From: Actinomycetes bacterium
Lineage (GTDB): Bacteria; Actinomycetota; Thermoleophilia; Solirubrobacterales; 70-9
Reading direction: 5' to 3'
Length of the DNA: 64,000 nucleotides
Assembly (NCBI GenBank): GCA_016861045.1
Contig: BOKP01000002.1
Span: 62,001-126,000, forward strand
The position numbers and the translations under genes were made by a program. The notes under the pieces were generated by a model, which made no database searches, was not told the origin of the DNA, and saw only the letters and a list, made by a program, of their open reading frames with translations. This document shows, in pieces, positions 8,358 to 13,339 of the stretch. Within the stretch, counting starts at the first letter, position 1. Each line of letters opens with the position of its first letter.

Positions 8358-9467
8358 CTACCGGCGGGCGGCCGACCCGGCCGTCCGGGCGCATGCCTTC
8401 CGCTTCCGCTTCTTCGCCCTGACGAGCTTCCGCTTCGCCTTCTTCAGCCGCTTCGCGGCCTTCCGCTGCTCCGACCTGCCATCGGCACGCCTCACCTTCT
8501 TGCGGGCCTTCCCCACCGCGATCCTCGCCCGCTTCACCCGCTTCTTCGCCTTCGCGCAGGCGTCGCCGCTCCCGCCTCCGCCCGGGGCCGTCGGGGTCGG
8601 GTCGACCGCCAGCCCGAACGAGACCGGGAACCCGCTTCCACCGATGAAGGTCTCGTCGAGCCCGGTGCCGTCGAGGTTGGCGCGGGCCACACCGGGCGAG
8701 GATCCCCCGCCCGGCGTGGTCGCGTAGACATGGGCGTCATCGACGGCTACGGCCTGGGGCGAGAAGGCGGGGTCCGTCTTGATGAAGCTCTGATCGACGC
8801 CGCTGCCGTCGAGGTCGGCCCTGCCGATCGCGGCGTTCGCCCCGAACGAGTTCGACCAGTAGACGTGCGTCGAATCGACGGCGACGTCGGATGACGCGCT
8901 CGTCCCGACGATGAAGCTCTCGTCGACGCCGCTGCCGTCGAGGTTGGCCCTGCCGATCGAGCCGGTGGTCGCCCAGTAGATGTGGCCCCCGTCGACGGCG
9001 ATGCCCTCGACGAAATCGAGCCCCGAGATGAAGTCCGGGTCGACGTTCGCGCCATCCAGGTCCGCCCTGCCGATCGTTCCGGCGGCGGTCTCGCTGGACC
9101 AGTAGAGGTGGCCTCCATAGACGGCGATGCCTGCCGGGGACTCCAGGCCCGTGACGAAGTCCTCGGCCACCGCGCTGCCATCGATGCTCGCCCGGCCGAT
9201 CGCCCCCGAGTCGAAGACGCCGTGCGTCCAGTAGAGGTGGGCGGCGTCGACGGCGATCCCGTCCGCCCCGTCGTCGAGTCGCAGGAACCGCTGGTCGACT
9301 CCGCTGCCGTCGAGGTTGGCCCGGCCGATGCCCATGTCGCCGGACCAGTAGATGAGCGCATCCGCGCGGGATGCGGCCACGAGGGCGACGATCAGCGCCA
9401 CCGAGACCGCGGCGAGCGCCGCGAGCAGGCGCCGCCCGCCTGATCCGAAAGCCCATGAACCGACCAT
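8358..9467 (-). CDS. Secreted YWTD-type six-repeat propeller protein with Lys/Arg-rich tail
   Basis: The 369-residue protein starts with a signal peptide (about 1-37). Six repeats of roughly 40-45 residues follow, each with an IYW/LYW-type strand and an IGRANLDGSGVD-like turn, the pattern of a six-bladed LDL-receptor class B (YWTD) propeller. After a Pro/Gly linker (about 290-302) come some 65 residues made almost only of Lys, Arg and Ala, with a Cys near each end. The tail could bind anionic wall polymers or DNA, but that is inference. No enzyme motif is visible. A promoter lies upstream at 9546-9574. Confidence 0.75.
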   Translation of the reverse strand: MVGSWAFGSGGRRLLAALAAVSVALIVALVAASRADALIYWSGDMGIGRANLDGSGVDQRFLRLDDGADGIAVDAAHLYWTHGVFDSGAIGRASIDGSAVAEDFVTGLESPAGIAVYGGHLYWSSETAAGTIGRADLDGANVDPDFISGLDFVEGIAVDGGHIYWATTGSIGRANLDGSGVDESFIVGTSASSDVAVDSTHVYWSNSFGANAAIGRADLDGSGVDQSFIKTDPAFSPQAVAVDDAHVYATTPGGGSSPGVARANLDGTGLDETFIGGSGFPVSFGLAVDPTPTAPGGGGSGDACAKAKKRVKRARIAVGKARKKVRRADGRSEQRKAAKRLKKAKRKLVRAKKRKRKACARTAGSAARR

Positions 9468-9679: not shown

Positions 9680-11287
9680 CTACGAGGCCCGCCGACCGCG
9701 CCGGGACCGAGCCGGCCGGTAGCTGCGATCGGTCCCGCAGGCGGGGGCGCCGGCCCGCGGCTCGCGCACGAAGGCGTATGAGGTCGGCGGCAGGCGCAGG
9801 CTGCGTCCGCGCACCGGCTTCGGGGCCAGGTCGGTCCTGATCCGGCCCTTCGCGCTCGCCCGCAGCAAGCGGCCGTTGAGCATCACGTCGGTCCCGTAGG
9901 GATCGGGCGCGGTGACGACGAAGGCCCGGGCCCGCCCGCCCCCGGAGCCTGCGAGGCGCAGCGACTCGCTCGCGGTCGAGGACAGGTTCAGGGCGAGCAG
10001 GGTGACGCCGCCGGCGGGCCCGCCCGGCGAGCAGGCGCCGAACAGCTTCAACGTCGACGGCGAAGCCGGCGCCTTGACGTTCAGCTGCTTGCTCCCCATC
10101 AGCCGCTCCCACAGCAGCGTCGCCCAGTAGTCGGGGTCGGGCGCGCCGGTGATCGCGTCGAGCAGCCCGTAGTTGCTGCCCTGAAGGGTCTGGCGGACGA
10201 GCACTCCGACGCCGAGGCGGCCGAGTGTGCCGAGCTCGTTGAGGTGGAAGAAGGTGGCGATGAAGCGGTCGGAGTAGCCGATCTGACCGCCGGCGGCGGC
10301 GGTCGCCGTCTCACCGAGCCACAGCGGCGCCCCGGGCTGGTAGCGCTCCGCCAGGTCCCGCATGTAGCGGGCCGAGCGCACGACCTGATCGGTCAGCCAG
10401 TCCGGGTCGAGCGGATCGTCGGCCACGTGCGGCTCGATCGGGATCCGGGTCGAGAGCGCGTTGTAGTAGTGATAGTTGACCGCATCGTAGAAGCGCCGCG
10501 GCAAGAGCGGCATGATGTCGGCTGCGATCGGCCCGAGCGCGACCCCGATCCCCTTCTCGCCGTCGGGATCGGCCGGGGTCAGGAAGGTGCCGGGCCCGAC
10601 CAGCTTCAGCTTCGGGGCGACGTCCTCGACGAGCCGCTTGAACCCGATGCTGTCGCGCGCGTAGTCGGCCGCGGTGTAGCTCGACGGGATCCCGGAGATC
10701 CCGAACATGTTCGGCTCGTTGCCGTACTCGACGACGGCCAGAGGATACCCCCGCCTGACGTTGTAGCGGAGGAAGGCACGGGCGTTGCCCGGGAGCCAGC
10801 GGTAGTCGCCGTCGCGAGGCCCGGGCCCGGTGTTGATCCCGACCCACACCTTCATGCCGAGCCGCTCGGCGAACCGCATCGCGCCGTCCCACTGCGCCTT
10901 GGTGAGCACGCGCTCGTAGCCCGGCGGCGGCTCGTCGATCGGGTCCTTCGAGAGGTCGTAGTAGGTCTTGTTGGCGCCGGTGCCGCTGAGCCGCAGGTAT
11001 GCGGGGCGCCCCTGCAGCATCGCGCTTGTCAGTCGCACCAGCTCGGGGCGATCGAAGTCGTAGGGCGGCAGCGGGACCTCGGCCGGGGGGCCGCCGTCCG
11101 GGTTCCAGAACTCGCCGCCGACGACCTGGTCGATGTCGACCGCGATCGACATGTACCTGGGCCCCACCGTCGCCGCCGGCCGTTGCGGCTTCGCCTCGAC
11201 GCGGACGGCGGCCCCGGCTCGGGCCTCACCCGCCATGGCGAGCACCGCGACGACGGCAGCCGTCACCAGCCACCCTGAACGCCTCAT
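9680..11287 (-). CDS. Secreted glycoside hydrolase, GH79 (heparanase-like)
   Basis: From the ATG at 11287 the protein is 535 residues; an in-frame TTG at 11293 adds two. The N-terminus is a signal peptide ending near the AGEARA stretch. The catalytic barrel shows the acid/base glutamate in EYGNEPNMF (E193 when numbered from the TTG) and the likely nucleophile in LWLGETA (E328). This is the pattern of GH79 beta-glucuronidases and heparanases. A beta-rich domain follows, as in GH79 enzymes. The substrate is probably a uronic-acid-containing polysaccharide outside the cell, but other clan GH-A families remain possible. A weak -10 (TAGAGT) lies at 11337-11342. Confidence 0.75.
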   Translation of the reverse strand: MRRSGWLVTAAVVAVLAMAGEARAGAAVRVEAKPQRPAATVGPRYMSIAVDIDQVVGGEFWNPDGGPPAEVPLPPYDFDRPELVRLTSAMLQGRPAYLRLSGTGANKTYYDLSKDPIDEPPPGYERVLTKAQWDGAMRFAERLGMKVWVGINTGPGPRDGDYRWLPGNARAFLRYNVRRGYPLAVVEYGNEPNMFGISGIPSSYTAADYARDSIGFKRLVEDVAPKLKLVGPGTFLTPADPDGEKGIGVALGPIAADIMPLLPRRFYDAVNYHYYNALSTRIPIEPHVADDPLDPDWLTDQVVRSARYMRDLAERYQPGAPLWLGETATAAAGGQIGYSDRFIATFFHLNELGTLGRLGVGVLVRQTLQGSNYGLLDAITGAPDPDYWATLLWERLMGSKQLNVKAPASPSTLKLFGACSPGGPAGGVTLLALNLSSTASESLRLAGSGGGRARAFVVTAPDPYGTDVMLNGRLLRASAKGRIRTDLAPKPVRGRSLRLPPTSYAFVREPRAGAPACGTDRSYRPARSRRGRRAS

Positions 11288-11607
11288 CCGCAACCGCTCG
11301 CGGTCATCGGGGTCCGCCCCATCACCGGGAACCTCAACTCTAGTCTGACCCGCGCGATCCGGTCGCGATCCGGCCGCCGACGTCCGGGCTCAGCGCACCC
11401 CCTGTGAGCCACGCCGTGGCTCGGGCGCCCGCTCGGCCGCCGGACGCAGCCCCGACGAGCGAGCCAGCGTCGCCCGGCCGTCCGATCGACTCTCGCCATC
11501 TCGGTGTCAACGCGGGAGAGCGGTGCGGGTCGGGCCGGTTGGAGGTCACAGCCAGGGCCCGAACCGACCACCTCACGAGAAAGGCCCGATCACCAGGTTC
11601 TTCCTAG
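11288..11607. other. Intergenic region between the GH79 gene and tRNA-Arg
   Basis: I see no gene here. It holds a perfect 7-bp hairpin with a 3-nt loop (11406-11412 and 11416-11422), a candidate terminator for the minus-strand tRNA transcript. It also has a -10-like TAGAGT on the minus strand (11337-11342) that could serve the GH79-like gene. Confidence 0.4.
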
Positions 11608-11681
11608 CGCGCCCGACTGGATTCGAACCAGTGACCTTCGGTTTCGTAGACCGACGCTCTATCCGGCTGAGCTACGGGCGC
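11608..11681 (-). tRNA. tRNA-Arg (ACG)
   Basis: The minus strand folds into a full cloverleaf. It has a 7-bp acceptor stem, a D-arm with AGCCGGATA loop, and an anticodon stem TCGGT/ACCGA around loop CTACGAA with anticodon ACG. A 5-nt variable loop and a T-arm with TTCGAAT complete it. The discriminator is G at 11608 and no CCA end is encoded. The adenosine at the wobble position implies TadA-type conversion to inosine for reading CGN codons. A CCA nucleotidyltransferase gene is in this window (23834-25276). Confidence 0.97.
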
Positions 11682-11712
11682 GAGCTGGCGGGACTCCGTT
11701 CCCGCGCGGGCG

Positions 11713-11718
11713 ATTGTA
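11713..11718 (-). promoter_or_regulatory. -10 element of the tRNA-Arg promoter
   Basis: TACAAT on the minus strand, a near-consensus -10, stands 31 nt upstream of the tRNA 5' end. It would give a leader of about 24 nt to be removed by RNase P. No convincing -35 is visible. Confidence 0.5.
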
Positions 11719-11785
11719 GAGGGCGGGCGGAGAGCGACGCGGCGGAGAATGGCTCGCCCGAGGGGGGGCCCGGAGGCCGGTCCGT

Positions 11786-13339
11786 TCAGCCGCGGCCGAG
11801 GCGGGCGACGATCCGCGTGAAGCGGTCGAAGTCGCGGGTGAGTGGCGGGCTGGCCCAGGTCTTCTGCGCGATCACGGCCAGCGAATCCCGGTGGAAGCTG
11901 CCCGTGTCGAGGTCGCGCGGCCCCTGCTCCCAGGCATTGACCGAGGAGCCGAGGTTCCCGCTCTCGCCCGGCGTCATCGCCGCGCAGGGGCGGTTGCGCT
12001 CGACGATGACGAGCCCGCAGAAGAGGTCCGGGCGCCAGCCCTCGTAGGCCTCGGCGAGATCGGTCGGCCCGCCCCCGAGGTAGCCGGGGTAGGTCGGAAA
12101 CCAGCCCTTGTTGGCGATCCGGTGGCCGGCGACGAGGAGCTCGGCGGGGGCCGGAGGCGAGGGGTCCGAGAGCGGCGAGAGGTCGGTCCACCAGTCGACG
12201 ACGACGTCGCTGTCGACGCTGACCAGCGCCCCCGGCGCGAGCTGGTCGTTCCAGGCGCGCAGGACCTTGCCGTGGCGCCGGGCGAGCCGGTCGATCCGGT
12301 TGACGAAGCCGGCGATCGCGTCCCGGTAGCCGGCGCCGGCGCCGTAGCGGCGCCGCGCGTATTCGCCGAGCTGCGGGTAGTACGGCGCCGCCACCGGGGC
12401 CATGTACTCGTCGGCGCCGATGTGCAGGTAGCGACCCCCGAACAGGCGCATGTACTCGCGGAGGACCTCGGCGACGAGCCGTCGCGCCGCCGGATCGGTG
12501 ATGTCGAGCTTGCCGCCGGCGAACAGCGGCGGCGGCGTGCCGGTCGGCTCGAGCTCGAGCCCGGGGTGGGCGGCGAGGAGGGCGCCGCTGTGGCCGGGCA
12601 GGTCGATCTCGGGGACGACCTCGATCCGGTGGCGCCGCGCGACCGCGAGGATCCGCTTCATCGCCCCGATCGTCAGCGCGCCCGGCGAGGCGAGCTCCGG
12701 GTGGGTGCGCGACTCGAGCCCCCAGCGCTGGTCGTCGGTCAGGTGCAGGTGCAGCGTGTTCAGCTTCAGCCCGGCGATCCGCCTGATCTCGCGGATGATC
12801 CAGCCGGCCGGGAACGCCTCGCGCCCGAGGTCGAGCATCAAGCCGCGCTCGCGGTAACGGGGCCGGTCGCGGCCCCGGCCGCGCCCGACCGACGCCGGGC
12901 CGCGGAGCAGCTGGAGCACCGTCCGGGTGCCGTAGAAGGCGCCGCCCGGCCGGCGGGCCACGATCTCCAGCTTCGATCCGACGTCGATCCGGTAGCCCTC
13001 GCCCCCGAGCCGCCGGTCGCCGGCGCCGAGCCGGAGGACGACGTCGCCGGTCCGGGGGCGGGCCCCCCGCCGCGAGACGACCCGCGGCGCCCGGCCACGC
13101 TGCCGCCCGAGGTCATGGGCGAGGACCCGGGCGACGGGCCGCAGCCGTCCCCGGCCGGGGACCGCGACGACGATCCGGCTCGAGCGCCGCAGGTGGAACC
13201 GGCCGGGCTCCGGCTTCCAGGTCCGCAGCGCCGGCACCGTCTCGGGGCGTCCGCCCGCGACCGCGGCGGACCTGGGCGCGGCGCCGGCCGCAAACGCGAG
13301 GACCGCGACGAACGTGAGACACAGCACCCTCGCCGTCAC
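11786..13339 (-). CDS. Secreted beta-N-acetylhexosaminidase, GH20
   Basis: The 517-residue protein begins with a signal peptide (about 1-28). A GH20b domain (about 40-160) and the catalytic barrel follow, with LHLHLTDDQRW, a PEIDLPGHS segment and the catalytic pair D310-E311 in LHIGADEYM. It would remove terminal GlcNAc or GalNAc from glycans or chitin/peptidoglycan fragments by substrate-assisted catalysis. The start is GTG. A promoter-like pair lies at 13382-13410. The neighbouring GH79-like gene suggests joint use of extracellular glycans, but the tRNA separates them and each may have its own promoter. Confidence 0.9.
   Translation of the reverse strand: MTARVLCLTFVAVLAFAAGAAPRSAAVAGGRPETVPALRTWKPEPGRFHLRRSSRIVVAVPGRGRLRPVARVLAHDLGRQRGRAPRVVSRRGARPRTGDVVLRLGAGDRRLGGEGYRIDVGSKLEIVARRPGGAFYGTRTVLQLLRGPASVGRGRGRDRPRYRERGLMLDLGREAFPAGWIIREIRRIAGLKLNTLHLHLTDDQRWGLESRTHPELASPGALTIGAMKRILAVARRHRIEVVPEIDLPGHSGALLAAHPGLELEPTGTPPPLFAGGKLDITDPAARRLVAEVLREYMRLFGGRYLHIGADEYMAPVAAPYYPQLGEYARRRYGAGAGYRDAIAGFVNRIDRLARRHGKVLRAWNDQLAPGALVSVDSDVVVDWWTDLSPLSDPSPPAPAELLVAGHRIANKGWFPTYPGYLGGGPTDLAEAYEGWRPDLFCGLVIVERNRPCAAMTPGESGNLGSSVNAWEQGPRDLDTGSFHRDSLAVIAQKTWASPPLTRDFDRFTRIVARLGRG

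What the first reader, a model, noticed from the sequence alone, without database searches (positions are those of the whole stretch)
8358..9467. Six-repeat YWTD-like propeller with a Lys/Arg/Ala tail
Six repeats with IYW/LYW strands and an IGRANLDGSG-like turn match a YWTD fold rare in bacteria. After a Gly/Pro linker comes a 65-residue, nearly pure Lys/Arg/Ala segment bounded by two cysteines. A secreted polycation could anchor the propeller to teichoic-like polymers, LPS-like glycans or DNA.
Basis: partly seen in the sequence, partly recalled or inferred. Interest (0 to 1): 0.6.

Follow-up and report, generated by a model that had tools for sequence, protein, structure and literature searches.

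The report
Secreted propeller with cationic hairpin tail
An environmental actinobacterium encodes an exported, doughnut-shaped protein built like part of animal LDL receptors and ending in a strongly positive helical hairpin between two cysteines; related bacteria attach the same kind of hairpin to proteases and other exported proteins, so it looks like an undescribed reusable module, perhaps for holding proteins on negatively charged surfaces.

Summary
ORF 8358-9467(-) encodes 369 aa: a signal-like N-terminus, six ~42-residue YW repeats, a Gly/Pro linker, then a 56-residue Lys/Arg/Ala segment from Cys304 to Cys359 (the only cysteines), net charge +28. Pfam Ldl_recept_b passes its cut-off. AlphaFold plus VIA-align gives a six-bladed YWTD propeller (Z 32.5 to nidogen, 241 residues, 1.7 A). 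The tail is not merely polycation: it is predicted as an antiparallel alpha-hairpin, and its relatives show 3.5-residue (heptad) periodicity. A congener keeps the propeller, the exact tail length and both cysteines. Eleven Cys-bounded cationic hairpins sit on exported-looking proteins in nine of 50 sampled genomes of this Solirubrobacterales family (YWTD, RCC1, trypsin, S8, S15, DUF5122); none was confirmed in 71 other genomes of the order or in a phylum-wide sample. Gly lies at the midpoint in 8 of 11 detected segments. The propeller is strongly acidic (-26), the tail basic; homologous propellers often carry other, differently folded basic C-terminal domains. Best reading: electrostatic retention on wall or matrix polyanions; charge-driven self-assembly is a real rival. 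Bacterial YWTD propellers are sporadic, not unique. New variant of a known kind.

The parts
9357..9467 (-). N-terminal signal-like segment, residues 1-37 (twin Arg, hydrophobic stretch, SRADA before the first blade)
   Evidence: most hydrophobic 15-residue windows begin at residues 16-18; helix 11-32 in the model; export and cleavage site are inference
8589..9356 (-). Six-bladed YWTD-type propeller, residues 38-293, net charge about -26
   Evidence: Pfam PF00058 36.6 bits and DUF5050 34.5 bits; model mean pLDDT 88.4 with 24 strands; VIA-align Z 32.5 to 1npe_A over 241 residues; charge
8559..8588 (-). Gly/Pro/Ser linker, residues 294-303
   Evidence: sequence; local pLDDT minimum at residues 296-300
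8391..8558 (-). Cys304-Cys359 cationic hairpin (+28): helix 1, turn near Ala-Asp-Gly, helix 2
   Evidence: helices 299-327 and 331-368 in the full model; tail alone pLDDT 90.2, two helices; best period about 3.5 residues
8361..8390 (-). short C-terminal extension, residues 360-369 (ARTAGSAARR)
   Evidence: sequence; low pLDDT at 366-369

Best explanation
The gene encodes an exported two-module protein. Module 1 is a closed six-bladed YWTD propeller, a ligand-binding scaffold whose ligand is unknown. Module 2 is a cationic antiparallel coiled-coil alpha-hairpin bounded by two cysteines, probably joined by a disulfide at its base after export. The hairpin presents about +28 charge on a rigid rod and most likely retains the acidic propeller on polyanions outside the cell (the bacterium's own anionic wall or capsule polymers, or acidic matrix). 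The hairpin is a reusable module that this Solirubrobacterales family also places on exported-looking proteases and other repeat proteins. Supported by computation: fold prediction, conservation, recurrence, charge pattern. Inferred: export, disulfide, polyanion target, retention.
For: Propeller fold. Hairpin predicted alone with pLDDT 90.2 and in the full model. Best period 3.43-3.56 residues per turn in ten of eleven hairpins, below 0.05 against shuffles in 14 of 22 arms. Gly within 1.5 residues of the midpoint in 8 of 11 detected segments; none of 5000 shuffles reached that count. Recurrence on YWTD, RCC1, trypsin, S8, S15 and DUF5122 proteins in nine genomes of one family. All ten hairpins measured carry +14 to +37 and the rest of each protein is acidic, -4 to -46. 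Related propellers mostly carry other basic C-terminal domains, so basic charge at this position recurs although the fold changes. The Lys/Ala-rich C-terminus of mycobacterial HBHA binds sulfated glycans (PMC3293801), an analogy only.
Against: No binding target is shown. The hairpins were collected with Lys/Ala-rich DNA patterns, so their shared charge is partly selected by the search. Strong opposite charge on the propeller allows self-association instead. In this member the arms do not beat shuffles for periodicity (p 0.28 and 0.16), and the predicted turn puts Cys359 about five residues further from the turn than Cys304, so an intramolecular disulfide is not established (residue counting). 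Lys/Ala sequences favour helix in single-sequence prediction anyway.
Confidence: 0.5

Rival explanations
1. Charge-complementary self-assembly: the basic hairpin (+28) docks on the acidic propeller (-26), within one molecule or between molecules, giving a compact latch, head-to-tail polymer or condensate rather than binding an outside polymer.
For: Propeller -26, tail +28; the window's propeller is more acidic than all 39 homologous propellers measured (range -20 to +27, median -7), and the rest of all ten hairpin proteins measured is acidic.
Against: Charge sums alone do not show docking; many homologous propellers are mildly acidic with no hairpin.
Confidence: 0.25
2. The hairpin is a rigid spacer or dimerisation coiled coil, and its positive charge is incidental to a Lys/Ala-rich way of making helices in this lineage.
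For: What recurs most clearly is architecture: Cys, heptads, midpoint Gly, heptads, Cys, with lengths 28-98; the RCC1 hairpin of the same genome has 11 acidic residues.
Against: All ten hairpins measured remain strongly positive, +14 to +37, though the search favoured Lys.
Confidence: 0.12
3. Part of a local glycan-degradation cluster: the protein works with the neighbouring GH79 and GH20 enzymes, the tail binding an acidic polysaccharide substrate.
For: Same-strand genes upstream: GH79 N-terminal domain (57.2 bits) and GH20 (116.9 bits).
Against: No GH79 relative was found in the two congeners, of which G002 has the tailed propeller; G041, which has GH79 relatives, has no propeller match. The pairing is not conserved.
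Confidence: 0.07
4. Low-complexity tail without selected function, grown by repeat expansion and drifting.
For: Tail pN/pS of 0.75 between congeners indicates only weak constraint.
Against: Length exact at 56 codons without gaps, both cysteines kept, at 54% identity against 51% for the propeller part; recurrence with midpoint Gly on unrelated proteins.
Confidence: 0.06

Closest known systems
LDL receptor class B / YWTD six-bladed propellers (PF00058; nidogen, LRP4, LRP6, LDLR)
   Same: Repeat length, YW strands, six blades, predicted fold
   Different: Bacterial; no EGF module among the Pfam matches; motif is YW-x-x rather than strict YWTD; ends in a cationic hairpin
DUF5050 (PF16472)
   Same: Above the gathering score, 34.5 against 27 bits
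   Different: Family of unknown function; the match does not include the hairpin
Virginiamycin B lyase family (PF24684)
   Same: Propeller similarity, 28.6 bits
   Different: Below the curated cut-off of 50 bits
HBHA of Mycobacterium, C-terminal Lys/Ala/Pro domain
   Same: Lys/Ala-rich cationic C-terminus on a surface protein; binds sulfated glycans (PMC3293801)
   Different: HBHA's tail is made of KKAAPA and KKAAAKK repeats with proline; no propeller; no Cys-bounded hairpin described there
Alpha-hairpins of periplasmic adaptors (AcrA, EmrA)
   Same: Antiparallel helical hairpin, rmsd about 1.3-2 A
   Different: E-values not significant (best 0.16 overall); no evidence of kinship

Membership tests
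YWTD / LDL receptor class B propeller | Repeats score above the PF00058 gathering cut-off | tested here: met
   36.6 bits against 21, three stretches
YWTD / LDL receptor class B propeller | Six blades, closed fold like solved YWTD domains | tested here: met
   AlphaFold model with 24 strands; VIA-align Z 32.5, 241 residues, 1.7 A to 1npe_A; a prediction, not a solved structure
YWTD / LDL receptor class B propeller | YW strand start in each repeat (literal YWTD is a consensus, not required in every blade) | tested here: met
   strands read YWSG, YWTH, YWSS, YWAT, YWSN and, degenerate, YATT: YW in five of six, literal YWTD in none
DUF5050 | Score above gathering cut-off | tested here: met
   34.5 against 27 bits
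Virginiamycin B lyase | Score above curated cut-off | tested here: not met
   28.6 against 50 bits
A curated Pfam or NCBIfam domain for the hairpin | Any match over the tail | tested here: inconclusive
   none listed over the tail, but correction for biased composition can hide one
Cys-bounded cationic hairpin module (proposed here) | Cys at both ends, two helices, Gly at the midpoint | tested here: met
   Cys304 and Cys359, Gly 1.5 residues from the midpoint, two predicted helices
Cys-bounded cationic hairpin module (proposed here) | Heptad periodicity of both arms | tested here: inconclusive
   best periods 3.5 and 3.56 in the window's arms, but p 0.28 and 0.16 against shuffles; significant in the congener
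Cys-bounded cationic hairpin module (proposed here) | Intramolecular disulfide | not testable with these tools
   needs biochemistry; model coordinates were not readable here
HBHA-like glycan-binding tail | Binding of sulfated glycans | not testable with these tools
   no binding data

The most novel reading that the evidence does not exclude
The Cys-bounded cationic heptad hairpin is an undescribed, mobile extracellular domain of one Solirubrobacterales family, growing and shrinking by paired heptads and moved between propellers, RCC1 proteins and proteases as a generic electrostatic anchor, much as other lineages use LysM or GW modules.
Probability: 0.45. Interest if true: 0.62.

Novelty: new variant of a known kind. 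Interest (0 to 1): 0.45.

Why it matters
If the hairpin is a real shared module, it suggests how a poorly studied group of environmental actinobacteria could hold proteases and binding proteins near the cell without a sortase or lipid anchor, and it gives a compact, testable cationic domain. It also points to a pattern, acidic YWTD propellers paired with basic C-terminal modules of several different folds, that can be tested directly.

Tried and rejected
Protein searches with the tail found only the window and the congener and missed the RCC1 hairpin of the same genome: they are insensitive to such composition, so DNA patterns were used instead. A looser Cys-started pattern over 300 class genomes gave mostly chance hits outside the family, like its reversed control. 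Allowing two mismatches in the own genome was no better than the control, 22 against 21. The GH79 link was tested and is not conserved. No promoter- or terminator-like site was found by simple consensus. Literature searches found no description of such a tail; the library is incomplete. A Foldseek search with the tail model gave no significant match.

Full report
Observation. The ORF at 8358-9467 on the minus strand encodes 369 aa as stated. It has a hydrophobic N-terminal segment, six YW repeats spaced 39-45 residues, a short Gly/Pro linker and a basic tail. The tail runs from Cys304 to Cys359, 56 residues, with 30 Lys/Arg, 11 Ala and 2 acidic residues. These are the only cysteines of the protein.

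Propeller. Pfam PF00058 and DUF5050 pass their cut-offs; virginiamycin B lyase does not. phmmer finds LRP4, LRP2, LRP6, nidogen and designed Pizza propellers. An AlphaFold model from a 31-sequence alignment has mean pLDDT 88.4 and 24 strands, four for each of six blades. VIA-align places residues 36-293 on nidogen with Z 32.5, 1.7 A over 241 residues, and on LRP4 and LRP6 with Z above 31.

Family and distribution. The genome is 2.7 Mb in five contigs. It has a second propeller on contig C4 with a different C-terminal domain. Twenty of 61 genomes (own and near relatives) have a match. A scan of the species-genome collection returned 132 relatives, of which the 80 listed are mostly in records titled Solirubrobacterales or Actinomycetota, with scattered ones in other phyla. 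Some loci of family f1 carry the same sequence as records titled Solirubrobacterales (for example L006 and L071), which places the window's family in that order; the window's own name was not given. C-terminal domains of these propellers vary widely: basic beta-type domains, Ig-like domains, RTX-like repeats and others (the domain descriptions are by eye).

The tail. The congener G002 has the end of the propeller at a contig edge followed by a 56-residue Cys-to-Cys tail, aligned without a gap at 54% identity; the propeller part is 51% identical; pN/pS is 0.75 and 0.60. A DNA pattern for K-A-K-x-x-[VLIM]-x-x-A-x found one more protein in the window's genome: a Cys-bounded 87-residue hairpin ahead of RCC1 repeats. 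In 120 relatives it found Cys-bounded hairpins on two trypsin-like proteins, another RCC1 protein, an S15 peptidase, a subtilase, a DUF5122 propeller and two proteins without a clear family. In all, eleven hairpins lie in nine of 50 genomes of family f1, and the hits in 71 genomes of other families of the order were not hairpins. In a phylum sample of 246 genomes the pattern rang in 22, and none of the hits outside the window's genome was a Lys/Ala Cys-bounded hairpin.

Hairpin architecture. The isolated tail is predicted as two helices with a three-residue turn, pLDDT 90.2; the full model agrees. The best hydrophobic period is 3.43-3.56 residues per turn in ten of eleven hairpins, near the 3.5 of coiled coils, and 14 of 22 arms are below 0.05 against shuffles; the window's own two are not. 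Gly lies within 1.5 residues of the midpoint in eight of eleven detected segments; no set of 5000 shuffles reached that. Cys-to-Cys lengths are 28, 45, 56, 56, 69, 69, 87, 97, 97, 97 and 98, often close to multiples of 14, as if one heptad per arm were added at a time; this last point is a suggestion from few cases. By residue counting the window's predicted turn leaves the two cysteines about five residues out of register, so the disulfide is inference.

Charge. The propeller carries about -26 and the tail +28. Among 39 homologous propellers the range is -20 to +27 with median -7, so this one is the most acidic measured. In ten hairpin proteins the hairpin is +14 to +37 and the rest -4 to -46. 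Most homologous propellers with a sizeable C-terminal part have a basic one. The search pattern favours Lys, so the hairpin charges are partly selected; the charges of the other C-terminal domains and of the propellers are not.

Neighbourhood. Same-strand neighbours upstream are GH79 and GH20 glycosidases and further on COX1; an enoyl-ACP reductase-type gene converges from the other side. GH79 has no match in either congener, so I do not build on it.

Conclusion. The protein is a divergent YWTD propeller with a recurrent cationic hairpin. Retention on extracellular polyanions is the most likely use; charge-driven self-assembly is the main rival. HBHA's Lys-rich tail, which binds sulfated glycans (PMC3293801), is a functional analogy and not a relative.

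Noticed in passing
window 9680-13339 (-): Two glycosidase genes, GH79 N-terminal domain and GH20, lie upstream on the same strand as the propeller; the GH79 gene has no match in either congener.
   Followed up: partly
L036:1021-2385 (own genome C3 near 97010): Exported-looking RCC1-repeat protein with an N-terminal Cys-bounded 87-residue Lys/Ala hairpin.
   Followed up: yes
L058 (G015), - strand: Peptidase-like protein (PA and M28-like by eye) with a long Lys/Ala-rich helical insertion without flanking cysteines.
   Followed up: no
L003:1429-2523 (own genome C4): Second YWTD-type propeller in the genome, 83.7 bits to PF00058, with a basic Ig-like C-terminal domain instead of the hairpin.
   Followed up: partly
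L079, L085, L103, L125, L134, L142: MAG records titled Bifidobacterium breve with environmental-style isolate names carry several of these propellers; the organism names look doubtful.
   Followed up: no
L055 and L172: Proteins with a Lys-rich N-terminus containing several cysteines ahead of what may be a parallel beta-helix; similar composition but no symmetric hairpin.
   Followed up: no
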